Below are positions 19,796 through 55,640 of a DNA stretch of 64,000 bases, piece by piece. Below the pieces are notes generated by a model. That model saw only the letters and a list, made by a program, of their open reading frames with translations, did not search any database and had not been told where the DNA came from. Source of the DNA: a virus; IMG/VR virus record IMGVR_UViG_3300047320_000285, positions 124,001-188,000 of that record, one strand, 5' to 3'. Made by a program: the position numbers and the translations under genes. How positions within the stretch are numbered: position 1 is the stretch's first letter; every line of letters begins with the position of its first letter.

Positions 19796-20360
19796 AGTTT
19801 CGGGCGGTAGTCAAGTCGCCAACACACTCGTCTACGGGTTGATTCAGACGACCTTGCGAGGCGCTGGGTTCGATGATCTGAAACTGCAGCACCCCTACGG
19901 GTCTGCGGAGTCTGCGGATTCAGACGACATGGTGAGCCTGTTGGAAGTCTTGCAAGTCTCGAACCCGCAGTTGTTCGAAGTCCCGGTAACCTTGGTCCAG
20001 AAGGTCACCGACCGGACCTACGACTGGGGACAGCCGACGCATTTGGTCGAAAGCTTCGTGTACGGTGCTGACGAATACGAAGGTAAAGACTGTTCGAATG
20101 CCGAAATCTATCGCACCGAACAAGCCAAGGCTTTCCTCGCGAAGGTGCATGCCAACCAGACCCCAGCGGATCGTGCAGCGGCTGATGCCGAAGAACTCGC
20201 GATGGAAAGCAAGTTCTTGAAGCACATGAGCAATCCGGCGGTTCGCGAGGTACTGGAAGATCTGTTCGACGAAAAGATCAGCGAGACAGAATTGGCCGAG
20301 TTGCGCGCGAGCGTGGAAGCTAAGCAGAAAGCGGCTAAACAAGAAGCGTCTACGGCATAA
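19758..20360 (+). CDS. Small paralogous-family protein, member 6 of 6
   Basis: 200 residues; the ATG at 19758 lies inside the previous gene with AAAGGAGAG upstream. Family domain in residues 1-80: LKVEVSGGSQVANTLVYG, LRGAGFDDLKLQHPYG, SLLEVLQVSNPQLFEVPV, then TLVQKV. A helical C-terminal extension (about 115-200) rich in A, E and K ends the protein, so this is the longest member. The stop codon lies inside the outer arm of the downstream GGCATA-type terminator. Function unknown. Confidence 0.65.
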   Translation: MEKKEALQPLKVEVSGGSQVANTLVYGLIQTTLRGAGFDDLKLQHPYGSAESADSDDMVSLLEVLQVSNPQLFEVPVTLVQKVTDRTYDWGQPTHLVESFVYGADEYEGKDCSNAEIYRTEQAKAFLAKVHANQTPADRAAADAEELAMESKFLKHMSNPAVREVLEDLFDEKISETELAELRASVEAKQKAAKQEASTA

Positions 20361-20403
20361 GCCTCCGAGCCCTCTACCTTTTGGGGTAGAGGGACGTATG
20401 CCG
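20353..20403 (+). terminator. GGCATA-family double-stem terminator
   Basis: Inner stem CCCTCTACC (20370-20378) / GGTAGAGGG (20385-20393); outer stem CGGCATA (20353-20359) / TATGCCG (20397-20403), extendable by one pair. CCTTTCTTTTTT follows. The stop codon of the preceding gene is part of the outer arm. Confidence 0.8.
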
Positions 20404-20453
20404 TCCTTTCTTTTTTGGCTTAATCTGATGTCCCCCTCATTCCAAGGATCGTC

Positions 20454-20804
20454 ATGTACCTGCCTTTGCAACCCCCGCCGGGCCCTTACGCCAGCCAAGA
20501 GACGCTCTTCGAGTGGCTCAAAGCGAACTGTCGCGACGCCACCTTACCGGCGACTATTTTCGCGCTGTGGAGTTACCCGCTCGCCGTCGTCCTCAAATAC
20601 AAGGTGGCCAAAGTGCGGGACTCTGCCAGTGCCTTAGCTGCTGACCCGACTAACAATCCCGCCCGGGGTGGGCGGGTCGACATTATCGTGCTGGAAGATG
20701 TCGATAACGATTGTGCGTTGTTTCACGTCGTGCTGGATACCGCCTTCAATACCAACCAGACGGGTGAGTGGATTACCGGTATCAACCCCCTGACAAGTGC
20801 CTAG
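20454..20804 (+). CDS. Small hypothetical protein
   Basis: 116 residues, ATG start with AAGGATC nine bases upstream. N-terminus proline-rich, then a helix (QETLFEWLKANC), a hydrophobic segment (TIFALWSYPLAVVLKYKVAKV, about 36-56) too mixed for a sure membrane helix, and a beta-rich end with VDIIVLEDVDND (about 77-88). Not a member of the neighbouring paralogous family. Last gene of the plus-strand run, bounded on both sides by GGCATA-type hairpins, so possibly a separate transcript. Function unknown. Confidence 0.6.
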   Translation: MYLPLQPPPGPYASQETLFEWLKANCRDATLPATIFALWSYPLAVVLKYKVAKVRDSASALAADPTNNPARGGRVDIIVLEDVDNDCALFHVVLDTAFNTNQTGEWITGINPLTSA

Positions 20805-20805
20805 A

Positions 20806-20838
20806 GCATAAGCCCAGCCCGAAGGCTGGGCGCTATGC
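20806..20838. terminator. GGCATA-family bidirectional terminator
   Basis: Inner stem GCCCAGCC (20812-20819) / GGCTGGGC (20824-20831), loop CGAA; outer stem GCATA (20806-20810) / TATGC (20834-20838). Lies between convergent genes, so it can serve both. Confidence 0.8.
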
Positions 20839-20850
20839 CGTTACGCCAGA

Positions 20851-23658
20851 TTACAGCTTGAAACCGCTATCGTCTTCGAGGGGGTTGTCACCCTTGTTCT
20901 CGTCGTTAGCGTTGGCGTCAGGATTCTCTTCAGTCGGACCACCCAAACCGCCCAGACCATCATCCAGACCCCCCAGACCCGTATCCAAGCCACCGAGTCC
21001 GTCGTCGAAACCACCCCCAAAGCCACCGCCACTGCCCGCGCTCGAAGTCGAGGTCGCTTCCGAGGTGGTGGCTTCTGCCCCGCCCTCAGTCGTATCGGCT
21101 TCTTTGCGTTTGGCTTCAGCAGCGTTGGCTTCCTTCTTGAGTTCAGTCATCTTATCCAAGAAGTGGTTGATGGTGGCGCCCATCGCCTTGGCGTGCTCGC
21201 TACTGACGTTGTACAGATCGACCCGCGGCTTGCCTTCTTCGTCGGTGGACACGAGTTCCGACAACTCCGAGAGCATGCCCGTTTCGGCCATGTACTTACG
21301 CGCGTAGTAGGCCTTGATGTTCTCCTTGACCATGTCGACGTGTTCCGACACATCGCCAATCGTATCAGCATTGAGGATGTTGGTCGAGACATAGTAATCG
21401 AGCGCCTTCTCCAGCGTTTCCATGTACTTGTCGAACGCCGCTGCTTGGTTCTCCAGCGACACCGAGTTCGGTCGTGGCAACGAGACCTTAAAGCCCAGCA
21501 CGAAGTCGTACAGCGCCTCGCGGATGATCAGCTCCTTCAGCTGGTCCTTGCTACCCTCAGCCAGCCGCGAGAAGCGTGCTTTCATCTCCTCATCGTTCTC
21601 GTAGCGACGCAAAATCGCGTCGTACTTGGATTCGATGATCTTGCGCAGATCTTTGATGAGACCTTCATCGTTCATCGCCACTTTGTGCAGGTGATCTTCC
21701 ACCAGCGGCACGAACTGATCCTGCAAGCTGATCACGTTCTTCGAGATCAGGATGTTGTTGGTCACGATCGAGGTGGCAAACTCCGCCTCATAGCCCGCAT
21801 CCACCACCTGTGCCGGCAGACCAAACTTCTGGATCGAGCGCTTGCGCAAGTCCTCTTCCAGCTCCGTGTCCGGCTTCACGTAGTTGCTGTTCTTCTCCGT
21901 GAATTCCACCGACGTATCCGGCATCCGGGGGTGACCCGAGAAGCTGAACTCGAATGCGGCCCGCTGCATGTAATCCGTCAGGTCCACCGGTGAGGTGACG
22001 CCGATCGGGAAGGCTTGCTGACGCGTGCGGGCGATTTCGTGCATGTAGCGCTCAATCGTCTTTTGCGGATCCGGATCGGTTTCATCCAGCTTGATCGCCA
22101 CGCCGGTGCGGCCGATGGAGTTCTTCATCGCCGCCATGGTGTTGGAGAACGTCAGCATCGAGCGCAGCGACGACAGGATCTTCATCTCGTCGAGTACCGA
22201 GCGACCGATCCCATCCGGGCTGAACTTGAACGCAAAGTACGTCATCAGCTCAATCGGCAGGAACAGCATCTGCGTGTGCTGTGAGGCCAGCGCGCGTGCC
22301 AGCATGATCCGGTAGACTTCCGGCTTATTCGCCAGTGCTACGCCGTTGGTGTAGATGCCGTTACGCAGACGACTGAGCAGATCCTGCTCCACCATCGCGC
22401 CATACACCTGAGCCGAGTAAGCCAGATGTTGCCGGTTACCGGTATCAAAGCCGCTGATGTTGGCCTTGACCTTGTTCAGCATCGCGGTGGCAAACGAACC
22501 ACCGGAGTTCATCCGGTTCCCCATCTGGGAGTAGATATCTTCCGGATTCTGACGGGTCAAGGGATTGCCGTCTTCGTCGATCAGCACAAAGAAGCCCACC
22601 TGCTGCTTGACGTTGCCCGGCACATACACCGGAATCACCGCTTCGCTGGGCAAGTGCATGATCAGCGGCGCACCCACCGTGCGACGGTTCAGGCGCTCCT
22701 GCGTGACGATCGTATCGATGGGCCGGTACTGACGGTTCGGGCTCTTGTAGAGCAGGTTATGCAGTTCCCGATCCGACAGTTTGGAGGGATCTTCCGCATA
22801 CTTCTCCAGCGCCATGCCGCCTAGCGCGCCCTTGACGCGCTCTTCGCGGATCTTCTGGTTGACCTGCGGGATCTTCAACAGGTTCTGGTTGTCAATTACC
22901 GAGGTGAAGGTATCCTGCGCCTTGCCACCGAAGTGGTCTTCCAGTGCCAGATATGAATCGTACTCCGGACCTTTGCGCCGGGACGGATCGTTAAACGACT
23001 CCATCGACAGCGAGGCTTGCTTGCCGCCGACCACGCTCTGCTGGCCCTTCTTGGTCGGATTACCCAGCAAGCCCTTACACTTGATCGAGCCATCGGCGTT
23101 GATGTCCGAGGACAGACTTTCCATCTTGATAAAGCGATTGTTGTTAATCACTTCATCGATGGCGTTTTCCGGAATCACCGCCACCGGGTAAGAACCCGTG
23201 TGCAGAATCATGTCCTTGAGCCACGAGGACATAAGCGGTTTAATGTTATAGTCGGTCTCGAAATACTTCCCCAACCGATCCACCAAGGCAGCCGCCACGT
23301 CAGGAGGCAAGCTGCCCTCCGGGGCGCTATAATTCACCTCGGTGGTCATCATGTCTTTCGGGGACAGGATACACGAAATCAGGATGGTTGCCGCCAGTTC
23401 CGTTTCCGGCAGCACTTGCATCACGGTCTCGGCGTCCGTAATGTCGCGCCCAATCCGCTCCGACAGATTCCGCAGTTCGAAGACGTTCGGTTCACCCGGT
23501 TGCATTTCGCCACGTTGGCTGAACTTGGCGGGTTCGCGGCCGGGAATCAGCTTGGAAAGCATTGCCGCCAGTTCCGGTTCATTCCGTACCAACGGCATGA
23601 CCGGATACTGTTTCCCCTTGCTCGCCAGGCCGATTGCGGTCTTAAGCGCTTTTGACAT
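20851..23658 (-). CDS. Portal vertex protein, large phiKZ-like type
   Basis: 935 residues, ATG start, a size typical of giant-phage portals (phiKZ gp129 is of similar size). Early part: LPETELAATILISCILSPKD (85-104) and a long mixed domain. Centre: YFAFKFSPDGIGRSVLDE (about 482-499) followed by helices rich in K and E, like the region around the tunnel loop and crown helices of portals. Residues about 860-935 are a low-complexity glycine/aspartate tail with GGLDTGLGGLDDGLGG repeats. The portal forms the dodecameric DNA channel at the head vertex. The assignment rests on size, pattern and position near the capsid operon; a direct comparison was not possible. Confidence 0.6.
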   Translation of the reverse strand: MSKALKTAIGLASKGKQYPVMPLVRNEPELAAMLSKLIPGREPAKFSQRGEMQPGEPNVFELRNLSERIGRDITDAETVMQVLPETELAATILISCILSPKDMMTTEVNYSAPEGSLPPDVAAALVDRLGKYFETDYNIKPLMSSWLKDMILHTGSYPVAVIPENAIDEVINNNRFIKMESLSSDINADGSIKCKGLLGNPTKKGQQSVVGGKQASLSMESFNDPSRRKGPEYDSYLALEDHFGGKAQDTFTSVIDNQNLLKIPQVNQKIREERVKGALGGMALEKYAEDPSKLSDRELHNLLYKSPNRQYRPIDTIVTQERLNRRTVGAPLIMHLPSEAVIPVYVPGNVKQQVGFFVLIDEDGNPLTRQNPEDIYSQMGNRMNSGGSFATAMLNKVKANISGFDTGNRQHLAYSAQVYGAMVEQDLLSRLRNGIYTNGVALANKPEVYRIMLARALASQHTQMLFLPIELMTYFAFKFSPDGIGRSVLDEMKILSSLRSMLTFSNTMAAMKNSIGRTGVAIKLDETDPDPQKTIERYMHEIARTRQQAFPIGVTSPVDLTDYMQRAAFEFSFSGHPRMPDTSVEFTEKNSNYVKPDTELEEDLRKRSIQKFGLPAQVVDAGYEAEFATSIVTNNILISKNVISLQDQFVPLVEDHLHKVAMNDEGLIKDLRKIIESKYDAILRRYENDEEMKARFSRLAEGSKDQLKELIIREALYDFVLGFKVSLPRPNSVSLENQAAAFDKYMETLEKALDYYVSTNILNADTIGDVSEHVDMVKENIKAYYARKYMAETGMLSELSELVSTDEEGKPRVDLYNVSSEHAKAMGATINHFLDKMTELKKEANAAEAKRKEADTTEGGAEATTSEATSTSSAGSGGGFGGGFDDGLGGLDTGLGGLDDGLGGLGGPTEENPDANANDENKGDNPLEDDSGFKL

Positions 23659-23675
23659 TATAAACCCTCTTGAAT

Positions 23676-23684
23676 AATTACTGG
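23676..23684 (+). promoter_or_regulatory. Weak promoter-like AATTACTGG
   Basis: In the 33-bp divergent gap before 23692. Similar to the TTACTGCC motif at 46874 but one base off, and it precedes a virion gene, not an early-type gene. Low confidence. Confidence 0.2.
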
Positions 23685-23691
23685 AATCGTC

Positions 23692-26052
23692 ATGGCGAAC
23701 TCAAACTATTACCAAATCTACATCGGTAAAGTCCTTCAGCTCGCTGCGACCATTGTGATTAAATCGACAGATTTTGCACAAGCAATCAACGCTGGCTTGC
23801 AGGCGCAGGCCATGGCCGCTGGGCTTTCCGCGGATTCGGCGGTCGATCTGACCGATCCGACAACGTGGAAGTACTATATGAATTTGGCAGGCGCGTATCA
23901 TCCGACCGATACCCCGATGCAAGTGGTGTCCATGGATACGCTGGAAACCATCGATTTTACGGTGGCGAACCTCGCAATCCATCGGGCGACCAATCGCGCC
24001 TACCAGTACGGCACCCGCCAGTACAATGAGTTGCTCTCGCTCTACCCGCAACAGGAAATGCTGATCCGCGGCATTCTCTACCCGGTCGATCTGGCGACGG
24101 CGATTGCCGCGGACGACTACACGATTCTGGGCGGTTACCCGGCGGGGCTGGTGGAAGCGAACGAATACACCCTGATCGAGCGTTTGCAGACGTGGATCAA
24201 CGGCACCATGCTGCGCTGGTACAACCGCGCCTACACGGTGTCGGACAATCTGTACTGTGCGGCGCACTGGGGCAAGGTGTATTTGTTTCTCGTCCCGGCG
24301 ATTTTGAACCTGCGCCTCGAGAAGTGTAAAACCAATGAGGCTCATAGTTTTCACGTACGTCAGTATCTGGCCTCGCATGGCGGGCTGGATGCGTTCTTTG
24401 AACAGCTCACCACCGCCCAATCGCTGGCGCTGTATCGCAACATCGCCTACCTCGAACGCCATCCGGGGCAACAGGCGAGCTTTACGTATCTGGTCCGCAA
24501 GCTGCTCACCGAGCGTAACTTGCCGCTGGCCGAGTACGACATGAAGCACGATACGTCACAGATGGATGGCTTTGATCCGGTGCTCTCCGGCACCGAAGGC
24601 AATCGGGGGAGCGACATCCAACCGACCATCTTCTTTGAACGTACCCCGCTGAACTTGGGCTTTAGCTTCGACACGGCCAACATCGCCACACTCGATCAGT
24701 TGCTGACCAAGGAACAGCCCACCGCTCGGGATAACGCAGAGTTTCAGACCGACGTGGAACCTGCGATCCGCTCGCAGATGGCGTACTCGCTGGGTAACAA
24801 GCTCAAGACCAAGGCGCTGGAATCGGCCATGGTGGACTACACCGATGCGTCGCCCTACACGCTCACCTCGACCCTACTCAATCACTGGTTGTGGCTGGCG
24901 CACTCCGGCTACTACACCGCGGTGGTGAATGTGGCCAATCCGGTCACCGGGGAACGGATCGCCTTACCGGCGCTTGACGCATATGCTTTCATGTGGTACG
25001 CGTTCTGCCAGACCATCGGTCTCGTGCTCGATGAGATCCCACCGGTGTTGGCCACCCACGTCCAGCGGATCCCCACGCCCTCGCCGTCGGACCTGATGAG
25101 CGTGGTGGATACCAGCATGGTGGGGATTGACCGCGCCAAGTGGTTGCTCTCGTATCAGCCGGTGATCACCAACATGATCTCCACCGATGCGTTCTACGCC
25201 ATGTGTCAACAGATCTGGCGTGCGGAGAATATCCAAGCCAATATCGTCGCGCTGGAGGAGCATCAGGTTAAACGCGCCTACGTGGATAACATGATGAATC
25301 GCATCTACGCCGATGTGCTGGTGCCGCTGTCGACACCGGGGGATAATTACAAGGCATGGTTTGCCGCGCGCAACATCGATCTGACCGGCTGGTCGAAAGA
25401 TGACTTCGGGCTGGTGTACACGAGTCTGGTGGCCACCGCCACGGGGCAGGACTTGACCACCAATAACTCGGTGGCGGCGTTGCAAAAGGCCATGATCGGG
25501 ATCATGCAACAGCTCTCGTCCTACAGCGTGCAGTACCTTGCGTACATCAACAGCGGGGCGATTGTACCGCTCGACTGGCCGATGGTGCGACTGGGCGACA
25601 TCAACGCCAAGATCTTGGGCGAGTATGAAATCCCCAACCTGAACGTCCGCCTGCTGGACTTTGGCAGTACCTTGCGCCGCGTGCTGAAGCTGCCGATCTG
25701 GTACAACGACTTTGACATGAGCCTGATGGTCAAGGTCAAGGACGGCTACCGTTACGAGATGAAAGACCTGATCCGGTTCGCCAAAGCACCGGCCACGGTG
25801 TACAAGCAGAAGCTGGACATCCCGGTGGACATCACATGGGAGGGTGCGGAAGCCACCAATGATCTGGGGATTTTCCCGGTACTGGGGATCGACCAATATT
25901 TGCAGTTGACCCCGGATCAGCAGCAGAACTTCAAGGATGTGTATGGCTCGTGCTGGACACCTGAGAATCCGCAATATGTACAACTGTCAACGCTCGTGCG
26001 CGCGACGGACCTCAATGGTCTGGTCTACGTGCAGCCGACACAGCAACCCTAG
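23692..26052 (+). CDS. Large virion structural protein
   Basis: 786 residues, ATG start with only a weak ribosome site. No enzymatic motif, signal peptide or membrane helix. It is a large, mostly helical N-terminal region (1-300) followed by mixed alpha/beta. The aromatic-rich, tyrosine-rich composition with many short loops is typical of tail or neck proteins of this phage group. It is transcribed divergently from the portal-like gene, and the next gene is also structural in style, so a role in the neck, tail sheath/terminator or baseplate is likely. I cannot assign it further. Confidence 0.55.
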   Translation: MANSNYYQIYIGKVLQLAATIVIKSTDFAQAINAGLQAQAMAAGLSADSAVDLTDPTTWKYYMNLAGAYHPTDTPMQVVSMDTLETIDFTVANLAIHRATNRAYQYGTRQYNELLSLYPQQEMLIRGILYPVDLATAIAADDYTILGGYPAGLVEANEYTLIERLQTWINGTMLRWYNRAYTVSDNLYCAAHWGKVYLFLVPAILNLRLEKCKTNEAHSFHVRQYLASHGGLDAFFEQLTTAQSLALYRNIAYLERHPGQQASFTYLVRKLLTERNLPLAEYDMKHDTSQMDGFDPVLSGTEGNRGSDIQPTIFFERTPLNLGFSFDTANIATLDQLLTKEQPTARDNAEFQTDVEPAIRSQMAYSLGNKLKTKALESAMVDYTDASPYTLTSTLLNHWLWLAHSGYYTAVVNVANPVTGERIALPALDAYAFMWYAFCQTIGLVLDEIPPVLATHVQRIPTPSPSDLMSVVDTSMVGIDRAKWLLSYQPVITNMISTDAFYAMCQQIWRAENIQANIVALEEHQVKRAYVDNMMNRIYADVLVPLSTPGDNYKAWFAARNIDLTGWSKDDFGLVYTSLVATATGQDLTTNNSVAALQKAMIGIMQQLSSYSVQYLAYINSGAIVPLDWPMVRLGDINAKILGEYEIPNLNVRLLDFGSTLRRVLKLPIWYNDFDMSLMVKVKDGYRYEMKDLIRFAKAPATVYKQKLDIPVDITWEGAEATNDLGIFPVLGIDQYLQLTPDQQQNFKDVYGSCWTPENPQYVQLSTLVRATDLNGLVYVQPTQQP

Positions 26053-28448: not shown

Positions 28449-28453
28449 ATCTG

Positions 28454-29907: not shown

Positions 29908-29954
29908 GTCATAACGCCCTCAGCCGCCCTGACGGGTAGCTGAGGGCTTATGCC
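29908..29954. terminator. GGCATA-family bidirectional terminator
   Basis: Inner stem GCCCTCAGC (29916-29924) / GCTGAGGGC (29939-29947) with a further CCC/GGG inside; outer GTCATAA (29908-29914) / TTATGCC (29948-29954) with one mismatch. Between convergent genes. Confidence 0.8.
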
Positions 29955-35858: not shown

Positions 35859-35898
35859 GGGCATAGGACCCCGGGGGCGACCCCGGGGCTTATGTCCC
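35859..35898. terminator. GGCATA-family bidirectional terminator
   Basis: Inner stem CCCCGGGG (35869-35876) / CCCCGGGG (35881-35888) around the loop GCGA; outer GGGCATA / TATG(T)CCC (35891-35898) with one bulged T. Between convergent genes. Confidence 0.8.
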
Positions 35899-36951: not shown

Positions 36952-39444
36952 ATGCCTATCACAAGCATAGAACTCACCGGATTCAAGCCGTTAAATCCGG
37001 TAGCTCAGATCAAGAAACTCACCATTGTCTTTACGGAGCGTCTGCAGTTGCTGTTGGGTTCGAACGGGGTGGGTAAGTCGGCGGTGATGGGGGAACTCAC
37101 GCCACTACCTGCCGATAAGGACGATTACTACGAAGGTGGCTCCAAACTCGTCCATTACGATCACCTCCGTGCGCACTACGTGCTGCGCAGCACCATGAGT
37201 GCCACCCCGCGTCATAGTTTTCTTAAAGATGGCGAGGAACTCAACAAAGGCGGCACCCAGAGCGTCCAGAAAGAACTGGTGCTGCAACACTTTGGAATCA
37301 CCACCGAGATTCGGGATCTGTTGCTGGGTCGGGAACGGTTCACCGAGATGGAACCGCGCCGTCGGCGTGAGTGGTACACCAAGCTCGCGGAGGTCGATTA
37401 CGACTATGCGCTCGGGGTCTTCAATCGCTTGCGCAAACGGGCCAATGAAATCAGTGGGGCACTGAAGGACAACAAGAAGCGGCTGGTGGTCGAGCAAGCC
37501 CGGATTATCCCGGAAGTTGATCAGGTGCGCCTGCGGCTTGAACTCGAGGCGCTCCACACCGAACTGGAGATCCTGCGCGCCAACCAAGCACCGCTAGTGT
37601 CGGAAGCAGCGGGTTATGCCAATCAGTACGAGCGGCTGACGCAGGACTTGAATGGCTTGTCTGACAACGTGCTGAGGCTGAAAGGGCGGCTCCTCGGGCT
37701 GGAGCAGTTTGACTCGCCCGAAGCCCTGGATGCGACATTAGAAGAGGTGAAGCATGCGGTGACCGCGAAGTCCACCTTGTTGGCGGCCAGCACCAAGCAT
37801 CACGAAGGTTTGCAAAAGCAGTTTGATATCCTTAAGCAAACTGGCGAAGCGGGGCTGGCTGATCTGAAAGCGCGCATGCAAGAGAAACGCACCCAGCGTG
37901 ATGAGCTGCTCAAGGCACGCGCCATGGGGCTGGAGGGCATGGATCCGGATCTGGCGATCTCGGCGCTGAATTCGGTACGCGACGTGCTGGTGGAGGTGTT
38001 TATCCATCTGCCCTCGAATTCGGACCGGACTTTCTCCCGTGAGCGTAACCTCAAGGATCAGCAGGAGCAGGAACGTCTGATGATCCTGAAAGACCAGCAG
38101 ACCCGTCAGTATGCTGAGCTGGTAGCCAAGAAGCAGGTGATGGAGTCCCATAAAGCCATGGGGCATCAGCACTGTCCGAACTGTGGTCACAAGTGGATCA
38201 ATGGCTACAGTGATGAACGCATGGCGGAACACCTCGAAGCCATGGAACGGCTCTCCCGAGCGATCGATGAAACCGACAAACTGTTGGTGGTCAATAAGCG
38301 TGCGCAGGACGATTTCCATGCCTACCTGACCCAGTACATGCTCTTTAGCCGCACCGTCAAGGCGTGGCCGGTCTTGCAACCGTTCTGGGACTTCTTGCTG
38401 GCGGGCAATGTGGTGGTGGATTATCCGCGCAAAGCACAGGGTTGGATGGAAACGCTCGAGCATGATCTGCAACTCGATCTGGCGGCGAAGCGGGTCCAAG
38501 GGGAAATCAACGAGCAGATGCGGCTGATTGAACAGGCGGCGCAACTCGGCGATGTGAACCTGATTAGCGTGCAAGCGCAGCTGCACGATTCGGAGTTTCA
38601 GATCCAGACCTATACCCGGGAACTCACCGCGGCGCATCAGGAACAGCAACGCCTCACCGTACTGCGTCGCCACCTGAATGAGTATCAGGAGCTGGGTAAC
38701 CGGATTGAAGCGCAACTGATTCGCATGGGCGAGCTGACCGATCAGCGGGTGGAAGCGTTGCGGCGGGAAGTCATCCACGAACAGATCCGTCAGACCTCGG
38801 TGGCGATTGGGACCCGCGCCAAGCTGCTCGATGAAGTCGAGTTGCAAAAACGTACGGTCGCGGGACTGGAGTTCCATCTGGAGGAATTGCAGCTGCAAGC
38901 CGAAGCCACCAAGCTGATGATCGACGGACTCTCCCCGACCGATGGCCTGATTGCCGACGGCTTGTTGGGCTCGATCCAGAACTACACGGCGTCAATGAAC
39001 GGACTGATCAAGAAGATCTGGACCTATCCGTTTGAGATTCTGCCGTGTGGAACCTCGACGGAAATCGGTGCCGAGCTGGATTACAAGTTCCCGTTGTATG
39101 TGAACGGTGAACTGGTGCCCGACATCAAGCGCGGGAGCACGGGGCAGCGCGAAGTCATCGATCTGTCGTTCCGGGTCGTGGCGACCACGCGACTGGGCTT
39201 GATCGAGCCGCAACTGATGCTGGATGAGTTTGGCGCTGGGCTGGACTACATGCACCAGCGCGCGGCGGCAAGTGCGATCCAGCATTTGGTCGATTCGGGT
39301 CTATTCAGCCAAGTTTTTATGGTGTCGCACTATGAAGCGAGTTACGGTGCGCTGACGCAGTCTGAAATCGCGGTGCTGTGTCCCGACAATATCGTCGTGC
39401 CGCACAACGTGCCGTTTAATCAACATGTGACAATCGAAAACTAA
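36952..39444 (+). CDS. SbcC/Rad50/T4 gp46-like recombination ATPase
   Basis: 830 residues, ATG start. Walker A GSNGVGKS (36-43); long coiled-coil arms; a zinc-hook CPNC (Cys408, Cys411) at the apex; ABC signature RGSTGQRE (727-734); Walker B LMLDEFG with Asp758 and Glu759; and a final MVSHYEASYG. This is the full SMC-like layout of SbcC, Rad50 and gp46, which with a nuclease partner (SbcD/Mre11/gp47) resects double-strand ends for recombination-dependent replication. The nuclease partner is not in this window. The stop overlaps the next start (TAATG). Confidence 0.9.
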   Translation: MPITSIELTGFKPLNPVAQIKKLTIVFTERLQLLLGSNGVGKSAVMGELTPLPADKDDYYEGGSKLVHYDHLRAHYVLRSTMSATPRHSFLKDGEELNKGGTQSVQKELVLQHFGITTEIRDLLLGRERFTEMEPRRRREWYTKLAEVDYDYALGVFNRLRKRANEISGALKDNKKRLVVEQARIIPEVDQVRLRLELEALHTELEILRANQAPLVSEAAGYANQYERLTQDLNGLSDNVLRLKGRLLGLEQFDSPEALDATLEEVKHAVTAKSTLLAASTKHHEGLQKQFDILKQTGEAGLADLKARMQEKRTQRDELLKARAMGLEGMDPDLAISALNSVRDVLVEVFIHLPSNSDRTFSRERNLKDQQEQERLMILKDQQTRQYAELVAKKQVMESHKAMGHQHCPNCGHKWINGYSDERMAEHLEAMERLSRAIDETDKLLVVNKRAQDDFHAYLTQYMLFSRTVKAWPVLQPFWDFLLAGNVVVDYPRKAQGWMETLEHDLQLDLAAKRVQGEINEQMRLIEQAAQLGDVNLISVQAQLHDSEFQIQTYTRELTAAHQEQQRLTVLRRHLNEYQELGNRIEAQLIRMGELTDQRVEALRREVIHEQIRQTSVAIGTRAKLLDEVELQKRTVAGLEFHLEELQLQAEATKLMIDGLSPTDGLIADGLLGSIQNYTASMNGLIKKIWTYPFEILPCGTSTEIGAELDYKFPLYVNGELVPDIKRGSTGQREVIDLSFRVVATTRLGLIEPQLMLDEFGAGLDYMHQRAAASAIQHLVDSGLFSQVFMVSHYEASYGALTQSEIAVLCPDNIVVPHNVPFNQHVTIEN

Positions 39445-40777: not shown

Positions 40778-40823
40778 CGGCATAAAAAACGGGAGAGGCC
40801 GCGCGCCTCTCCCCAATATGCCG
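40778..40823. terminator. GGCATA-family bidirectional terminator
   Basis: Inner stem GGGAGAGGC (40791-40799) / GCCTCTCCC (40805-40813); outer CGGCATA (40778-40784) / TATGCCG (40817-40823), perfect. An AAAAAA run lies in the left spacer. Between convergent genes. Confidence 0.85.
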
Positions 40824-45947: not shown

Positions 45948-45989
45948 GCGGCATAGACGCCCGGGGCGACCCCCCGGGCTTTATGCCGC
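45948..45989. terminator. GGCATA-family bidirectional terminator
   Basis: Inner stem GCCCGGGG (45959-45966) / CCCCGGGC (45972-45979); outer stem GCGGCATA (45948-45955) / TATGCCGC (45982-45989), eight perfect pairs. Between convergent genes. Confidence 0.85.
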
Positions 45990-49730: not shown

Positions 49731-49742
49731 GAGCGGTGCATA

Positions 49743-50417
49743 ATGGCGGGCAACCGAGACGCTACCGAGCAGTTCATTCTCAAGTGGATTGGGAAGATCA
49801 TGCCCGGTGGCGAAAACGTGAAGATCTACAAAGATCTGTTCGCCTCGATGTCCGATAAGGATTTCGAGGCCTTTATGACCTCGATCGAGTCAGGCGAAGA
49901 GATGCTGGCAGTCATCATGCCGAACCTCGCCGAGGACAAGATCACGGTTGAAAACAACCTGAAGCTGGGCGATGAACTGGGCCACGACTTCTACCAGCGT
50001 ATCTGGATTGACGAAGGTAATGGCGATCCGCCCTACCTGACGCCCAAGCGTTATCTGGTCACCTTGCAGCCCTTGCGCCGACAAGCGCAGTTGCTGATCA
50101 AGAAGATCTCGATTCCGGAAGACAACCGCTCGATTAACGACTTGACGGGTCAACCGTCCAGTACTGGCAAGTCGCGCGGCTCGAAGATCTCCTACCCGGA
50201 AACGCAGATCATGGCGGCCTTGAATCTGGACAACTCGCTGATCGAGATGCTCAAATATCGCGGCGGTGATCAAAAGGGCTTCGTGGCGATGAACAAGGCC
50301 ATCAGCCAGACCGGCGGCGTGTCGCTCGAGGCGCTGAACAAGCTGGGCACGCGGGTCAAGTCGACCGATACGCTGCGCACCTTCCTGACTTGCATGCATT
50401 TCGAAGTCGACCTTTAA
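49743..50417 (+). CDS. Conserved-looking phage protein of unknown function
   Basis: 224 residues, ATG start with AGGAG. Residues 1-75 are helical and acidic (DKDFEAFMTSIESGEEML). Residues 88-224 contain a dense, basic pattern: YLVTLQPLRRQAQLLIKK, NDLTGQPSSTGKSRGSK, SYPETQIMAALNL, SLIEMLKYRGGD, and MHFEVDL at the end. The order QP-L/G-Q, GKS-like loop, E near the start of a helix, and a C-terminal strand is faintly like the end of RNA polymerase beta, but the match is not convincing. Other options include a virion assembly or DNA-binding protein. Confidence 0.5.
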   Translation: MAGNRDATEQFILKWIGKIMPGGENVKIYKDLFASMSDKDFEAFMTSIESGEEMLAVIMPNLAEDKITVENNLKLGDELGHDFYQRIWIDEGNGDPPYLTPKRYLVTLQPLRRQAQLLIKKISIPEDNRSINDLTGQPSSTGKSRGSKISYPETQIMAALNLDNSLIEMLKYRGGDQKGFVAMNKAISQTGGVSLEALNKLGTRVKSTDTLRTFLTCMHFEVDL

Positions 50418-50432
50418 CACTAGGATAACACA

Positions 50433-50978
50433 ATGAGTTATACCAACGCCGATACCGACATTGTCGGGGGCGCGATTCAGGCTGCGTGGCGCACGGTCGA
50501 AGGCCAAGTCTCCCCCGAGACGCGTCTGAAGCTCTACGAGTGGCTGATGAACTTTATCAGCGGGGAGAAGCCGTATCTGTGGGCTTCACCGGAGAACATC
50601 CCCCGCATCGTGCAGATGGTGTACAGCGACGAGCTGGTGCGAGACTTCGTGCATTCGTTGCAGTTTCACTTCATGTTGCGCTGGGGAGAAGCTAGTACAA
50701 AATTTACAGGGTTGGTCGATGTATTGAGCTGGAGCATTGGGTCCCATGGGTTGGATACCGAACACTCCGGTCGGAATCGAAAAGAGGATCACGGTGCTAT
50801 CCCCGAAGACATCCGCATGCGTCTCTCCTCACGCGAAGACGTGAAAGAACTGCTGCTGGACAATCCGTGGATGGTGTGTCTGCTGCTATTGCGCAGCTTC
50901 GTCAGTTTGGTCGATCCGACCAAACTCAAATCGCCTTATGGCGACTCGCCTGATGTGAAGACGATCGAGGCCCCGTAG
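50433..50978 (+). CDS. Hypothetical protein
   Basis: 181 residues, ATG start, 15 bp after the previous gene. Helical throughout, with a long aromatic helix (LKLYEWLMNFISGEKPYLW, about 32-50), FVHSLQFHFMLRWG (about 72-85) and WMVCLLLLRSFVSLV near residues 146-160, which is hydrophobic but short for a membrane helix. No family recognised. It ends before a pair of strong RNA hairpins, so it is probably the last gene of its transcript. Confidence 0.55.
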   Translation: MSYTNADTDIVGGAIQAAWRTVEGQVSPETRLKLYEWLMNFISGEKPYLWASPENIPRIVQMVYSDELVRDFVHSLQFHFMLRWGEASTKFTGLVDVLSWSIGSHGLDTEHSGRNRKEDHGAIPEDIRMRLSSREDVKELLLDNPWMVCLLLLRSFVSLVDPTKLKSPYGDSPDVKTIEAP

Positions 50979-50986
50979 AAGAAACG

Positions 50987-51004
50987 GCGACACGGGGGTG
51001 TCGC
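50987..51004 (+). terminator. GCGACAC / GTGTCGC hairpin
   Basis: Perfect 7-bp stem with a GGGG loop, 8 bp after the stop at 50978. Followed by TTAACGGGTTTCTTAACTC. Confidence 0.6.
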
Positions 51005-51029
51005 TTAACGGGTTTCTTAACTCTTTAGT

Positions 51030-51058
51030 AGCTCGGTCTCGCCGTGAGACACCGAGCT
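51030..51058 (+). promoter_or_regulatory. Leader hairpin immediately before the start codon at 51070
   Basis: AGCTCGGT (51030-51037) pairs perfectly with ACCGAGCT (51051-51058), continued inward by CTC / GAG. It ends 11 bases before the ATG and occupies the space just upstream of a weak AAAG site, so it may control translation. No T-tract follows, so it is a poor terminator. Confidence 0.45.
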
Positions 51059-51069
51059 GAAAGACCCTA

Positions 51070-51903
51070 ATGAATAAACAAGAACAGGCGCTGATGATCG
51101 AGCTTGATTGTTTGCTCGATACTCGCTTAGCGACCATTGCTCGCATTAGCGAGCAGGCAGCGGTAGATGTCTTGAAGAATGACTACCACAAGCGTAAAGC
51201 CGATTGGTTTGAGCCTGTGGTCGATATGGACCAGTACACGAGCTTGTATCGAGCACGTGACGTCGACACGCTAAAACTGGCGCACCCTACTGAAGGGTTC
51301 CGGTTCGTGCGCGAGATGGTCAAGTTGTATCGGGAGCAGGCTGTTGACACCAACAGTCCGTATAGCGGCAAGATCAAAATTGCTGTCAATACGTATCCCT
51401 ATCAGCTCAATGCTGAACTGACCGACCTCATCGGCAGAGCTTTGGCAGTAAGGTTCGGGGCGATCGCGTCCTGTGAACTGGTCAGCCTCTCACCTGCAGA
51501 ATTGACGCCGGAATTAGTTCGCGCGAGATTTTGCATGCTCATGATGTACGAGTACGATCCTTGGTTGAGCATGCACTACGATATTGATCCGTCGAAGCTC
51601 TCGGCGGGTGAAATGAAACAAGTCTTGAAGAGTCTGTTGCTCGATGTGACGCTGTTTGCACCTGCAGTGTATTACAAAAAGCCACCGACACAAGACGAAG
51701 TGGAAGAGGTGATGAAGGATACACATCACCCATTAGAAGTTATCGAAATGATGGGCACGACCGTGATCGGTCTCCATCTGCTCGATGTTACTTCTTTCAG
51801 TGTCATTCGACCTGCGCGGCCACAAATGCCCACCTCCACCACAGCTGCTCCTAGTGAGCCGGCTGTGGTGGAGGAAGGCTTACAGGATCCGATGCAGGAC
51901 TAA
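51070..51903 (+). CDS. Hypothetical protein with lower GC than neighbours
   Basis: 277 residues, ATG start with a weak AAAG ribosome site under a strong leader hairpin. Helical N-terminus (MNKQEQALMIELDCLLDTRLATI, split), a central alpha/beta part, and a proline/threonine-rich C-terminal tail (PTSTTAAPSEPAVVEEG). Codon use includes more AT-ending codons (TTA, GAT, ACT, GAG mix) than the capsid or terminator-flanked genes. This, with the isolated leader, suggests a moron-like accession or a weakly expressed gene. Function unknown. Its stop overlaps the end of the convergent next gene by four bases. Confidence 0.55.
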   Translation: MNKQEQALMIELDCLLDTRLATIARISEQAAVDVLKNDYHKRKADWFEPVVDMDQYTSLYRARDVDTLKLAHPTEGFRFVREMVKLYREQAVDTNSPYSGKIKIAVNTYPYQLNAELTDLIGRALAVRFGAIASCELVSLSPAELTPELVRARFCMLMMYEYDPWLSMHYDIDPSKLSAGEMKQVLKSLLLDVTLFAPAVYYKKPPTQDEVEEVMKDTHHPLEVIEMMGTTVIGLHLLDVTSFSVIRPARPQMPTSTTAAPSEPAVVEEGLQDPMQD

Positions 51904-52379
51904 CTGGGTTCAGTCTCGTCAGCTACGGCTGGCTTGAACTGGGCTTGGAAAGCTTCGAATGTCAGCTGAAGCGGCGACTGCGACAATTCCCCTTCCACTA
52001 ACACCGGCTCGGGTACATCACTGCCCAGCTCCGGAGCGACGCGAGTCACTCCGGGGTTTGTGGCCCCTTGCTGAAAGAATGTCGCATCTTTGGAGCGCTT
52101 GAGCATTTCGGCCACCAGCCCCGTCATGGCGGAGCCCGTCTTGTTGGCCTGCTCATCCACCTTGATCCGTTTGCGACCCAGCGCGTTGCGATCCATGCCG
52201 TCGAGCGCGCCGAGAATCAGGTTGACGTCTTTGGTGTCGCCGGGCAGAGCCGTGCCGTTTTGTGTGAGCTTGTCGATCACAAAGCGACGTTGTTGTTGGG
52301 TATAATTGAGGACTTGGTCCTCATCCATCGCAGGCGGCAAGACCTGCACTTCAGTTTGCGGTGCGGTGATTTCAGACAT
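51900..52379 (-). CDS. Hypothetical protein, acidic ends
   Basis: 159 residues, ATG start. N-terminal residues 1-20 are disordered and proline-rich, followed by a helical region (NYTQQQRRFVIDKLTQNG, about 25-42), a basic middle (ALGRKRIKVDEQANKTG, about 66-82) and an acidic C-terminus. Only minus-strand gene between 46826 and 55665, and the only convergent pair without an intervening terminator: the two genes overlap by four bases. A TATGTGG sequence upstream may be its promoter. Function unknown. Confidence 0.5.
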   Translation of the reverse strand: MSEITAPQTEVQVLPPAMDEDQVLNYTQQQRRFVIDKLTQNGTALPGDTKDVNLILGALDGMDRNALGRKRIKVDEQANKTGSAMTGLVAEMLKRSKDATFFQQGATNPGVTRVAPELGSDVPEPVLVEGELSQSPLQLTFEAFQAQFKPAVADETEPS

Positions 52380-52456
52380 AATAGCCTCGTGATGTATTGG
52401 ATTTCAACCACATATCATCCTTTTGTAGTTGCACCATGCTGTGCAGTCAAACTCCC

Positions 52457-52466
52457 TTATACTGCC
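52457..52466 (+). promoter_or_regulatory. Candidate early promoter TTATACTGCC
   Basis: 22 bp before the ATG at 52489. The extended sequence ACTCCCTTATACTGCCA is nearly identical to ACTTCCTTATACTACCA at 53024, before the next gene. Confidence 0.5.
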
Positions 52467-52488
52467 ACCACCTTACACGGGGTTCCTC

Positions 52489-53013
52489 ATGCGCCTAATG
52501 CGTAGAATCGTTCAGCCGTTGCGATACCAGTATCTGGAATATCGGCAAGCGGCTACGGGCGGGGTCCAGACACCGGATCGCGCGTACATGACAGAGTTGG
52601 TGAAACTGCTCCATCCTGTGGACTTTGAAACCTACCGTACCGAGCACGGCTTGGCGGCCACCGTGACCGTCCAGCATGCCAACATCGGCGAGATGTCGGA
52701 CTTTCTGAAACGCGCCGCCGATCTGTTAGCCGCGGGTCAGATGGTGCCGATTGAAGAGCTGCAGGCGCGCCAGACGACGGTGTCGCTCGACGAGTGGCTC
52801 ACGGTAGCCAATGGCTTTTATGTCAGCCCGGTCGGTGGCTTGACATTGTTTCTGGACCACGCGCGGCGATTACTGAAAGTCGTCGCTGCGCACGAACACG
52901 AGAAGGTTGGTGTCTATACCGCGAGCTGGCGGCAGATGCGCAACTTTTACGTGAGCTTGCAGGCGTTGTTGGTGTGTCTGGTGCAAGCCAGCCACGAGTG
53001 CCTGAAGGCGTAA
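52489..53013 (+). CDS. Hypothetical protein
   Basis: 174 residues from the ATG at 52489; an in-frame extension to 52429 would run through the promoter-like element. Basic N-terminal helix (MRLMRRIVQPLRYQYLEYR), a helical core (GEMSDFLKRAADLLAAG, about 64-80) and aromatic C-terminal helices with a hydrophobic end (FYVSLQALLVCLVQASH, about 153-169). It could bind membranes or nucleic acid through the basic start. It has its own motif-type promoter and a short leader. Function unknown. Confidence 0.55.
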   Translation: MRLMRRIVQPLRYQYLEYRQAATGGVQTPDRAYMTELVKLLHPVDFETYRTEHGLAATVTVQHANIGEMSDFLKRAADLLAAGQMVPIEELQARQTTVSLDEWLTVANGFYVSPVGGLTLFLDHARRLLKVVAAHEHEKVGVYTASWRQMRNFYVSLQALLVCLVQASHECLKA

Positions 53014-53029
53014 TTGCCGTAACACTTCC

Positions 53030-53039
53030 TTATACTACC
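53030..53039 (+). promoter_or_regulatory. Candidate early promoter TTATACTACC
   Basis: 19 bp before the ATG at 53059. Twin of the element at 52457 (14 of 17 bases or better over the extended motif). Confidence 0.5.
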
Positions 53040-53058
53040 ATGACACTGAGGTAACAAT

Positions 53059-53523
53059 ATGACACGAAGAAAGAATCGCGTCGAGGATATACTCGGCGAA
53101 AAAGACAAGCGTGCAGGTCAGACTTGGGGCATCGGGGGCATCTTGGCCAGTCTGTATCGCACGATTCTCGCTGATTGGAATATCGGCACGATGGAGTGGG
53201 GCAGACTGATGCACCGCTACCTGAATGACCCGACCAACACACGACGGAACAAACCCGGCGCAGATCAGGCCAGTACCCGGGCCAATATCGCTAAAGAGCT
53301 ATTGGACGAGCAGATGACGTGGAAAGTCTTCTGTAAAGGCTTGGTCTTTTTGCGCTTCTCTAAAATGCGTTTTAGCGTCGAGCTGACGCACCGAACGGGC
53401 CGTACCAAAGTGCACTTTATCGACGTGGACTTTGGACTAAAGGAAAACGCGCCCGAGAGCGAGGAACATCATGATAAACGAAACGAAGCGGCGGCCGACC
53501 AACGTGAGGCCCGCGATGAATGA
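53059..53523 (+). CDS. Hypothetical protein
   Basis: 154 residues, ATG start with GAGGTAA upstream. Basic N-terminus (MTRRKNRVEDILGEKDKRAG), a helical centre (WGRLMHRYLNDPTNTRR) and a beta segment (FLRFSKMRFSVELTHRTGRTK, split around 97-117) that could form a small DNA-binding fold. The end is acidic and overlaps the next gene by 53 bases in another frame. Transcribed from its own motif-type promoter, so probably early. Function unknown. Confidence 0.55.
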   Translation: MTRRKNRVEDILGEKDKRAGQTWGIGGILASLYRTILADWNIGTMEWGRLMHRYLNDPTNTRRNKPGADQASTRANIAKELLDEQMTWKVFCKGLVFLRFSKMRFSVELTHRTGRTKVHFIDVDFGLKENAPESEEHHDKRNEAAADQREARDE

Positions 53524-54130
53524 ACACCAAGCCTGCGCATTGACGCAAACCCGTACGCCGTTCTTTGCGGACGTGCTGAACCGGAGCAACGTGATGGAAG
53601 CCGAGGTGGATATGGTAACGCTGGACGACACGGCCAAGAGCAAGGTAGAACTGGACGGGGTCACCCACATCAACATCGACAAACGCGGTCGCACTGAACT
53701 GGGCCAGATGCTTACGCATATGTCACGGTCGCAGTTTGACCACCCGGAGTTCGGGCCGTTTCAATCGGTGGAAGGCTTTATCGGCTTTATCCGTAGTGGT
53801 GCCACTGACGATCAGTTTCATTACGTGCACGGCATGAACGCACGCTACCGGGCGAAGAATCAGAATTCGGATTTCATCCGGGGCTTTCGCGAGCTGGTGA
53901 TGCAGGCGAACTACCTGAAGATCGTGCAGAACGACTCGTTGCGCCGGGCCTTCAGGGACAGCATGCTGCCGTTCGATCACTACTATCTGCTGGGCAATGG
54001 TCGGCCGGTGCAGCCCCGCAATGCCCAATGGATCATCCCGGGCTTTGAAGAGCTGCGGCGTTTGATCAAGGCCGATCAGCCGTACCCGACCGTGGACTAC
54101 ACGGGTGTGCAGGAAATCGGTCGCGAGTAA
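53471..54130 (+). CDS. NADAR-like phage protein
   Basis: 219 residues, ATG start with GAGGA upstream, overlapping the previous gene. Residues about 90-215 carry a pattern seen in NADAR-related phage proteins: FGPFQSVEGFIGFIRSG, DDQFHYVHGMNARYRAKN, FRELVMQANYLKIVQND, LRRAFRDSMLPFDHYYL, and WIIPGFEELRRLI. NADAR domains act on ADP-ribose-type nucleotides, and phage members have been linked to countering NAD-based defences. The N-terminal 70 residues are of unknown fold. The family call is by pattern and is uncertain. Confidence 0.5.
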   Translation: MINETKRRPTNVRPAMNEHQACALTQTRTPFFADVLNRSNVMEAEVDMVTLDDTAKSKVELDGVTHINIDKRGRTELGQMLTHMSRSQFDHPEFGPFQSVEGFIGFIRSGATDDQFHYVHGMNARYRAKNQNSDFIRGFRELVMQANYLKIVQNDSLRRAFRDSMLPFDHYYLLGNGRPVQPRNAQWIIPGFEELRRLIKADQPYPTVDYTGVQEIGRE

Positions 54131-54142
54131 CTTCGCGCTCGT

Positions 54143-54175
54143 AGAGCGCCCCTTCGGGGGCTGCTCTTTTTTTTT
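54143..54175 (+). terminator. Classical rho-independent terminator
   Basis: AGAGCGCCCC (54143-54152) pairs with GGGGCTGCTCT (54157-54167) around TTCG, with one bulged C, followed by eight or more T residues. The clearest host-type terminator in the window. Confidence 0.9.
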
Positions 54176-54197
54176 GTTCATTTCAAGGATCGAAGCG

Positions 54198-55592
54198 ATG
54201 GCTGGAACAACTATTGGTACCGCGGTGCAAAGCGCCACTGCGGCGGCGAGTAAAGTGGCCAGTCAAACGGCTGCTGCCGTCAATCAAGCAGCATCCCAAC
54301 TCCCCACGACCCTCGGCGGCTTGACGGCTAACCTGAGTGGCAATACGTGGACTTCCTCCGCGAAAGATGCACTGGCGGTTAAAGACGTCTATACCGGGGT
54401 AGATGGCAAGAGTGTCCTCACCAGTGTCCAGAACCTGTTCAGTGACATCGGCCTGAATCTGTCGGATGTGCTGCGCGGGGGGAAGTGGGTCGCCGCACAG
54501 ATCCCGCTGATTACCTCGCTGGTCAAACAAGGCGAAGCAGTCCTGTCACAAAAAGGCCTTGTGGCCCGGGTGATGAGTGCGTCAGGCTTGGCGACGGGTG
54601 CCTTGTCACGACTGACCGCAGGCGCCACTGATGGCATCTTGGGCGAGATCAAGGACTTCGGGCAGGTGTACGCGTCGTTTAATGGCGTGCTGCAACGGGT
54701 GGCGTCGACCGATCTGACCAACATGAATGCCGTGGGTGGGCTGATCAATTCATGGACGGGTCAGAATGGCTTGTTTGCCTCCGACGACCAAGACGGGAAG
54801 GTCGGCTTTATCACGGGGCTGATCCATGACTGTACCAGCTACGGGATTCCCAATTCGTTTGGTTCGCTGGTGTCTCAGCTGGAGAATACCAATCTGGTGT
54901 CGCAGGTGACCAATCGGGTGCTGCCGTCCGTGATTGGGGCGAGTGACATCAGCTCGCTGAAGTCGATGGCCTTCACCCTCGGCGACAAAGCGATCACCGC
55001 CCTGAACCCGAATGCGGTGTCGCATTTCTCTTCGGCGTTCAGTATGCCACCGCTCTCGACGGCCACGGATAACTCCGCCAAGTTCGATGAACTGATCGAT
55101 GCGTACTCAACGGTGGATTCGACATGGAACACCAATGTCCGCAATACGGCCAACGGTTCGGTGTCGACCCTGAACCTGACCAGTGTGATGAATGGTTCGG
55201 ATGACTTCAATGTAGTGCTCAACCAAGGTTCGATGAGTGCGCCGCCCCCCACTGATCCCGCGCAGGTCAATCCGCAGCTGTATCAGCTGGCCACCAAACT
55301 GTCGACTCCGGACCCGGTGAGTACGCTGATGCAGCAGTTTCCGGCGACCCTGTATCAGCCGAATACGATCGCCGCTCAGCCGAGCACCGATGCCGATACG
55401 ATCGGCGCCAACCCATCCTTGGCCGCCGCGAGTGCCAACCCGACCTCGCAACAGCATATCTTGCTGGGTCACAGCCAAGGGGGCACACCAGTGTATTCGG
55501 ACGACCAGTACCGGGCCGGTATGATGATCGATATCACGCCGCAAGGTAAGGCCTATATCGATTCGAAGATTGCTGCCGGTCAGCCGTGGTAA
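54198..55592 (+). CDS. Virion structural protein
   Basis: 464 residues from the ATG at 54198, preceded by AAGGATCG; upstream in-frame codons cross the terminator. The N-terminal 35 residues are alanine-rich and helical. The rest is alpha/beta with repeated glycine-rich turns and no enzymatic motif (e.g. VGFITGLIHDCTSYGIPNSF, about 196-215). The C-terminus has a low-complexity P/T/Q stretch and ends SDDQYRAGMMIDITPQGKAYID. It faces the tail-lysin pair across a bidirectional terminator, which suggests a tail or baseplate role. Confidence 0.5.
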   Translation: MAGTTIGTAVQSATAAASKVASQTAAAVNQAASQLPTTLGGLTANLSGNTWTSSAKDALAVKDVYTGVDGKSVLTSVQNLFSDIGLNLSDVLRGGKWVAAQIPLITSLVKQGEAVLSQKGLVARVMSASGLATGALSRLTAGATDGILGEIKDFGQVYASFNGVLQRVASTDLTNMNAVGGLINSWTGQNGLFASDDQDGKVGFITGLIHDCTSYGIPNSFGSLVSQLENTNLVSQVTNRVLPSVIGASDISSLKSMAFTLGDKAITALNPNAVSHFSSAFSMPPLSTATDNSAKFDELIDAYSTVDSTWNTNVRNTANGSVSTLNLTSVMNGSDDFNVVLNQGSMSAPPPTDPAQVNPQLYQLATKLSTPDPVSTLMQQFPATLYQPNTIAAQPSTDADTIGANPSLAAASANPTSQQHILLGHSQGGTPVYSDDQYRAGMMIDITPQGKAYIDSKIAAGQPW

Positions 55593-55601
55593 GTCGCTCA
55601 A

Positions 55602-55640
55602 GGTCATAAGCCCCCTCCCGACCGGGAGGGGGTCTATGCC
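55602..55640. terminator. GGCATA-family bidirectional terminator
   Basis: Inner stem CCCCCTCCC (55611-55619) / GGGAGGGGG (55624-55632); outer GGTCATA / TATGCC (55635-55640) with one bulge. Between convergent genes. Confidence 0.8.

What the first reader, a model, noticed from the sequence alone, without database searches (positions are those of the whole stretch)
20353..55640. A family of double-stem terminators with a conserved GGCATA...TATGCC outer stem
At least eight gene ends carry a GC-rich inner hairpin of unrelated sequence enclosed by the same outer arms, CGGCATA and TATGCCG: 5408, 20353, 20806, 29908, 35859, 40778, 45948 and 55602, with degenerate forms at 1854 and 15678. Six of the seven convergent junctions have it; the seventh (51900) is an overlap with no space. 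Inner stems and loops vary freely while the outer 5-8 pairs and the spacing are kept, which is what selection on a protein- or polymerase-recognised sequence would give. Most lack a T-tract, so they may suit the phage's own RNA polymerase or be processing sites. Each arm also contains TATG, the core of phiKZ-type late promoters.
Basis: partly seen in the sequence, partly recalled or inferred. Interest (0 to 1): 0.75.

Follow-up and report, generated by a model that had tools for sequence, protein, structure and literature searches.

The report
Phage terminators sharing the promoter word
In giant phiKZ-type phages, the hairpins that end genes are followed, about five bases on, by TATG, the same four-letter word that phiKZ's own RNA polymerase uses as its late start signal; this suggests that one polymerase pocket may read the word both to start and to stop transcription.

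Summary
The elements are real. Every convergent gene junction with room for one (6 in the window, 6 in other held stretches of the same record) has a GC hairpin flanked by CATA and TATG. Where genes run in tandem, often only one arm is present. Where both arms occur, their variable outer bases do not covary: 34 pairs observed against 33.7 in shuffles, and pooled over relatives there are fewer pairs than in shuffles. The kept feature is strand-specific: hairpin, about 5 nt, then TATG (consensus TTTATGCCGT). Two-sided elements carry this motif once per strand. TATG ending 4-6 nt after the stem occurs at 25 of 75 gene-end hairpins (0.3 expected) and at 100 of 395 in 53 relatives (2.7 expected). 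Most one-base variants are at or below chance. phiKZ has it; T4, PB1 and AR9 do not. [quoted passage not shown] Best explanation: phage-specific intrinsic terminators whose U-tract is largely replaced by the polymerase's own recognition word, acting as a pause and release site. Termination and pocket involvement are inferred, not shown.

The parts
1855..1895 (-). One-armed terminator on the minus strand: GC hairpin followed by TTTATGCCG
   Evidence: fold z -4.1
5409..5445 (-). Two-armed terminator after gene 5448-7028(-): GGCATA...TATGCC
   Evidence: fold z -3.5
10365..10407 (+). One-armed terminator after the major capsid gene region: hairpin + GTTATGCC (longer spacer), 24 nt before an early-type promoter
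   Evidence: fold z -4.1
10431..10438 (+). TATATTAC early-type promoter motif directly behind a TATG terminator
11857..13509 (+). Homologue of phiKZ GP123, the beta-like subunit of the non-virion RNA polymerase whose pocket binds non-template TATG
   Evidence: PDB chain 7ogp_E PHIKZ123, E=2e-73; pocket residues compared
15675..15712 (+). Degenerate terminator: hairpin + TTGTGCC (no TATG)
18415..18445 (+). Degenerate terminator: hairpin + TCTGTGCCG (no TATG)
20354..20402 (+). Two-armed terminator at a tandem junction; the stop codon TAA of gene 19758-20360 lies inside the 5' arm
   Evidence: fold z -3.7
20805..20839 (.). Bidirectional terminator, convergent junction: AGCATA...TATGCC
   Evidence: fold z -4.1
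29908..29954 (.). Bidirectional terminator, convergent junction: GTCATA...TATGCC
   Evidence: fold z -5.3
35860..35896 (.). Bidirectional terminator, convergent junction: GGCATA...TATGTC
   Evidence: fold z -6.4
40779..40822 (.). Bidirectional terminator, convergent junction: GGCATA...TATGCC
   Evidence: fold z -4.5
45950..45987 (.). Bidirectional terminator, convergent junction: GGCATA...TATGCC
   Evidence: fold z -6.6
55603..55640 (.). Bidirectional terminator, convergent junction: GTCATA...TATGCC
   Evidence: fold z -5.8

Best explanation
These are transcription terminators of a phiKZ-like jumbo phage. The functional unit is strand-specific: a GC-rich RNA hairpin of free sequence, then about five nucleotides of T-rich sequence, ending in the word TATG (consensus TTTATGCCGT) on the sense, i.e. 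non-template, strand. At convergent junctions the unit is present on both strands around one shared hairpin, which creates the GGCATA...TATGCC palindrome; the outer stem is a by-product. Proposed mechanism (inferred): when the phage's non-virion RNA polymerase has transcribed the hairpin, the TATG in its melted non-template strand enters the GP123 beta-lobe pocket, the same pocket that fixes the start site at TATG late promoters. The polymerase stays tethered there and pauses, possibly scrunching a few bases further, long enough for the hairpin to fold and strip the RNA from the template. The recognition word thus does the work that a U-tract does for host polymerase. Shown here: placement, strand-specificity, spacing, four-base specificity, family-wide occurrence, absence in controls, no outer-stem covariation. 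From literature: phiKZ nvRNAP needs TATG, and GP123 binds it. Inferred: that the sites terminate transcription, and that GP123 reads TATG during elongation.
For: TATG is the most enriched tetramer after gene-end hairpins: window 14/24 vs 0.6 expected (P=5e-17), other stretches of the same record 26/51 vs 1.1 (P=7e-30). It is first or second also in FLC9, LucasX, FLC6, Noxifer and 201phi2-1, Moabite and PhiEaH1; in phiKZ 22/42 vs 3.0. Pooled over 53 dereplicated phiKZ-like loci: 192/395 vs 14.7. Ending 4-6 nt after the stem: 25 vs 0.3 (own) and 100 vs 2.7 (relatives). Of the nine one-base variants that keep the final G, six are below chance in the relatives (exceptions TTTG 13 vs 4.6, TGTG 6 vs 3.4, TAGG 4 vs 2.0); other NNYG words are depleted (88 vs 160), which argues against a general Y-1G+1 pause signal. 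Spacing mode 5 nt. Convergent junctions with room: 12/12 two-armed in the own record. Tandem junctions favour the downstream arm: 47 downstream-only vs 21 upstream-only; own record 11 vs 3. Genic hairpins 5/322. phiKZ late promoters are TATG with G as +1 and all four bases needed (PMC4666361; PMC7598289). GP123 binds non-template TATG at -3..+1 (PMC12809450). The window encodes a GP123 homologue with S144, F151, K158, N186, K190, H331, S334 and Q466 kept. Early-type promoters TATATTAC often follow such a terminator (3/4 own, 4/10 phiKZ).
Against: No RNA 3' ends were mapped; termination is inferred from position and hairpin. TATG as late promoter is not established for this phage: divergent intergenic regions hold 19 TATG vs 12.9 expected, and one 33-bp divergent gap has none. 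Many tandem hairpins lack TATG (123 of 215 lack both arms), so it is not universal. In several relatives upstream arms are as frequent as downstream arms at tandem junctions, which a purely downstream signal explains only if antisense transcription is also stopped, or partly by stop codons within CATAA. The link to the GP123 pocket is confounded by phylogeny: EL-like phages, with a changed pocket, still show a weaker excess (27/94 vs 2.7). Geometry: if TATG sits at -3..+1, only about 5 nt of RNA separate stem and active site, shorter than the 7-8 U of bacterial terminators, so scrunching or partial stem melting must be assumed.
Confidence: 0.58

Rival explanations
1. The hairpin plus TTTATGCCGT is a terminator or 3'-end processing signal read in another way: by an RNA-binding protein or nuclease acting on the UUUAUGCC tail, or by a property of the phage elongation complex unrelated to the promoter pocket. 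The identity with the promoter word is coincidence.
For: The consensus extends beyond TATG to CCGT, whereas no conservation downstream of TATG was detected in phiKZ late promoters (PMC4666361). EL-like phages with a diverged pocket keep part of the signal. No biochemistry is available.
Against: The four invariant positions are exactly the four bases needed for initiation, most one-base variants are at or below chance, and phages using other polymerases (T4, PB1, AR9) lack it.
Confidence: 0.27
2. One reading: a double-stem structure in which the outer arms are conserved because they pair.
For: Two-armed elements do fold with an outer stem; two-armed sites are the rule at convergent junctions; arms co-occur at tandem sites more than chance (odds ratio 3.2).
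Against: One-armed elements at tandem junctions; outer positions do not covary (own 34 pairs vs 33.7 shuffled; relatives 67 vs 79.8); the spacing constraint is stem-to-TATG.
Confidence: 0.05
3. The TATG words are late promoters (for the next gene or for antisense RNAs) placed behind hairpins, not part of the terminator.
For: TATG is the phiKZ late promoter word.
Against: Most frequent at convergent junctions, where there is no downstream gene on that strand (12/12 sites); fixed 5-nt spacing from a hairpin; only a weak excess upstream of divergent genes.
Confidence: 0.06
4. Ordinary intrinsic terminators with a short degenerate U-tract, TATG being an accident of base composition or inheritance from an ancestral repeat.
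For: Hairpins are typical and TTTAT is T-rich; some records annotate such sites as Rho-independent terminators.
Against: Hairpin sequences are unrelated while TATG recurs; TATG exceeds expectation about 40-80-fold at the right spacing and TTTT is rarer; it holds across loci down to 27% GP123 identity.
Confidence: 0.04

Closest known systems
Intrinsic (Rho-independent) terminators of bacteria
   Same: GC-rich hairpin at gene ends, T-rich bases after the stem, frequent bidirectional use
   Different: The run of U is mostly replaced by a fixed word TATG(CCGT) about 5 nt after the stem; only 3 of 40 have TTTT before it
phiKZ late (nvRNAP) promoters, 5'-TATG-3' with G as +1 (PMC4666361, PMC12809450)
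   Same: Same four bases on the same (non-template) strand, all four positions fixed
   Different: Here the word lies downstream of a hairpin at gene ends, mostly where no gene follows on that strand; it is extended by CCGT
Sigma70-dependent pausing at promoter-like sequences, and the core recognition element (reviewed in PMC4496710)
   Same: An elongating polymerase halted by re-reading a promoter-like word
   Different: Proposed here for a core beta-like subunit and coupled to a hairpin for release; not shown experimentally
Terminators built from DNA uptake sequences in Neisseria and Pasteurellaceae (PMC1852404)
   Same: A repeated conserved word in inverted orientation at terminators
   Different: There the word forms the hairpin stem itself; here it lies outside a hairpin of free sequence and tandem sites often have one copy

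Membership tests
Intrinsic terminator | Stable GC-rich RNA hairpin just after the stop codon | tested here: met
   Ten window elements fold with z -3.5 to -6.6; gene-end placement
Intrinsic terminator | Run of U directly after the stem | tested here: not met
   TTTT between stem and TATG in 3 of 40; T5 within 18 nt after TATG in 8 of 40
Intrinsic terminator | RNA 3' ends at the site without protein factors | not testable with these tools
   No transcript or in vitro data held
phiKZ-type nvRNAP recognition word | Exact TATG on the non-template strand | tested here: met
   100 observed vs 2.7 expected at 4-6 nt in relatives, most one-base variants at or below chance
phiKZ-type nvRNAP recognition word | Phage encodes the GP123-type pocket | tested here: met
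   Homologue at 11857-13509, E=2e-73 to 7ogp_E; most pocket residues kept, others such as Y399 and S402 not
phiKZ-type nvRNAP recognition word | Same word is the late promoter in this phage | tested here: inconclusive
   19 TATG vs 12.9 expected in divergent intergenic regions
Double-stem element (reader) | Outer arms covary | tested here: not met
   34 pairs vs 33.7 shuffled; 67 vs 79.8 in relatives
Bidirectional terminator | Signal on both strands at convergent genes | tested here: met
   12 of 12 convergent junctions with room
phiKZ-like phage | phiKZ-type major capsid protein | tested here: met
   PF25620 PhiKZ_MCP, E=4.4e-186

The most novel reading that the evidence does not exclude
A multisubunit RNA polymerase uses one core-subunit pocket (GP123) and one four-base word, TATG, both to choose where to start and, when the word follows a hairpin, where to stop; promoter and terminator specificity of these phages would then evolve together.
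Probability: 0.45. Interest if true: 0.85.

Novelty: new variant of a known kind. Interest (0 to 1): 0.68.

Why it matters
The polymerases of nucleus-forming jumbo phages are well studied in structure, but how they terminate was not described in any paper I could read. If TATG is a stop word as well as a start word, it helps with an open puzzle stated in the literature: how so short a promoter word can be specific, since context (hairpin or not) would decide what it does. It gives an immediate in vitro test with an existing purified enzyme, a way to predict transcription-unit ends in hundreds of jumbo phage genomes, and a correction to the idea that the outer palindrome is an RNA structure.

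Tried and rejected
Outer-stem selection: rejected by one-armed sites and lack of covariation. General Y-1G+1 elemental pause: rejected because other NNYG words are depleted. Uptake, packaging or partition repeat: TATGCCG occurs mostly intergenically (32 of 50) and at hairpins, and the spacing is fixed to the stem. Proving TATG as late promoter in this phage from divergent regions: inconclusive. Early (virion polymerase) versus late terminator classes in phiKZ: early-region hairpins tend to end TTTTATTT rather than TTATG, but numbers are too small and early/late lists were not at hand. Correlation with pocket residue 186 within phiKZ-like loci (182/359 vs 10/36, P=0.009) is confounded by relatedness. 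First view that only the downstream arm is kept at tandem sites: true on balance, not strictly. No paper found describing the signal; subscription papers on phiKZ, EL and OBP transcription were not readable.
Full report
WHAT WAS CHECKED. The window is positions 124001-188000 of a 253,740-bp virus record. A phiKZ-type major capsid protein (PF25620, E=4.4e-186) and a GP123-type polymerase subunit at 11857-13509 (E=2e-73 to the solved phiKZ chain) place it among phiKZ-like jumbo phages; the closest annotated record is Burkholderia phage FLC9 (56% capsid identity). I made a gene map (59 genes) with a simple codon-usage caller, and listed all strong hairpins in the window and in six further 20-kb stretches of the same record.

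THE OBSERVATION. All eight main sites exist. Over the whole record the strict pattern occurs 12 times against 0 for the reversed control.

THE OUTER STEM IS NOT THE POINT. The arms vary at their outer positions (GTCATA, AGCATA, TATGTC, TATGAC, TATGCT). If pairing were selected, changes on one side would be matched on the other. They are not: 34 pairs observed, 33.7 expected from shuffling arms among the 18 two-armed sites. In 66 two-armed sites of relatives pairing is even lower than in within-phage shuffles (67 against 79.8). At tandem junctions single arms are common: own record 11 downstream-only, 3 upstream-only, 6 both, 32 neither; relatives 47, 21, 24 and 123. The two-armed elements do fold with an outer stem, but that follows from placing the same strand-specific word on both strands.

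WHAT IS KEPT. After gene-end hairpins TATG is the most enriched of all 256 tetramers in this phage. It ends 4-6 nt after the stem 25 times against 0.3 expected; in 53 dereplicated phiKZ-like metagenome loci 100 against 2.7. Of the nine one-base variants that keep the final G, six are below chance in the relatives; TTTG (13 vs 4.6), TGTG (6 vs 3.4) and TAGG (4 vs 2.0) are the modest exceptions, and TATT (17 vs 3.7) and TATA (8 vs 2.3) also exceed chance, as expected where T-rich tails occur. Other words ending in pyrimidine-G are depleted (88 against 160). The wider consensus is TTTATGCCGT. The signal is present in FLC9, LucasX, FLC6, Noxifer, 201phi2-1 and phiKZ itself, in Moabite and PhiEaH1 and in relatives down to about 27% GP123 identity. 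It is absent from T4, PB1 and AR9, absent or nearly so in SPN3US-like and Aphrodite-like phages, which use T-runs, and weaker in EL-like phages.

THE LINK TO THE POLYMERASE. phiKZ late promoters carry TATG with G as the start site, and every one of the four bases is needed by the non-virion polymerase (PMC4666361; PMC7598289). A 2026 structure shows the beta-like subunit GP123 holding the four bases of the non-template strand at -3 to +1 in a pocket (PMC12809450). The terminator word has the same four bases on the same strand. Because GP123 is part of the core, the pocket travels with the elongating enzyme; the paper notes that the pocket is incomplete in the transcribing complex and opens by an 8-degree lobe rotation, so re-engagement during elongation would need that movement. 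In bacteria, re-reading of promoter-like words by sigma70 pauses elongating polymerase (reviewed in PMC4496710). I therefore propose that TATG after a hairpin is a pause word that holds the enzyme while the hairpin releases the RNA. The pocket residues named in the paper are mostly kept in this phage and in TATG-rich relatives, and more changed in SPN3US, EL and Aphrodite1; this agrees with the idea but is confounded by general divergence.

WHAT IS NOT SHOWN. No transcript ends were available. TATG as late promoter of this particular phage was not established. If TATG is held at -3 to +1, the stem ends about five nucleotides from the active site, closer than in bacterial terminators, so forward scrunching or partial melting of the stem must be assumed. 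Many tandem hairpins lack TATG. A reading through an RNA-binding factor or nuclease remains possible.

OTHER SUPPORT. Early-type promoters TATATTAC in the own record often lie just behind such a terminator (3 of 4; list), as expected if these sites insulate transcription units.

VERDICT.

Noticed in passing
window 10431-10438; also L030 3054, L031 5959, L031 12739, L033 11134: phiKZ-type early promoter motif TATATTAC in intergenic space, usually directly behind a hairpin-TATG terminator.
   Followed up: partly
L053 (phiKZ 1-50 kb) 3735, 7334, 8924, 32922: Hairpins after phiKZ early-region genes end in TTTTATTT-like tracts instead of TTATG; possibly a second terminator class for the virion polymerase.
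   Followed up: partly
window 15675-15712 and 18415-18445: Hairpins followed by TTGTGCC and TCTGTGCCG inside a tandem gene run look like decayed or attenuated versions.
   Followed up: no
window 20402-20420, 55640-55656; L028 9988; L031 15036: A run of five or more T lies within 18 nt after TATG in 8 of 40 elements, a possible second stop for another polymerase.
   Followed up: partly
SPN3US (L043), Aphrodite1 (L051): These divergent phiKZ-like phages use T-runs after hairpins and have changed GP123 pocket residues; their late promoter words may differ.
   Followed up: partly
66 two-armed sites in relatives (L054-L132): Outer positions of the two arms pair less often than within-phage shuffles (67 vs 79.8), as if a longer outer stem were avoided.
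   Followed up: no
window 20354-20360: The stop codon of the upstream gene (TAA) lies inside the 5' arm GGCATAA; stop codons may account for some upstream CATAA arms at tandem sites.
   Followed up: no
window 36952-39444 and 57830-63928: SbcC-like ATPase gene and a 2032-aa tail fibre protein with a transglycosylase domain.
   Followed up: no
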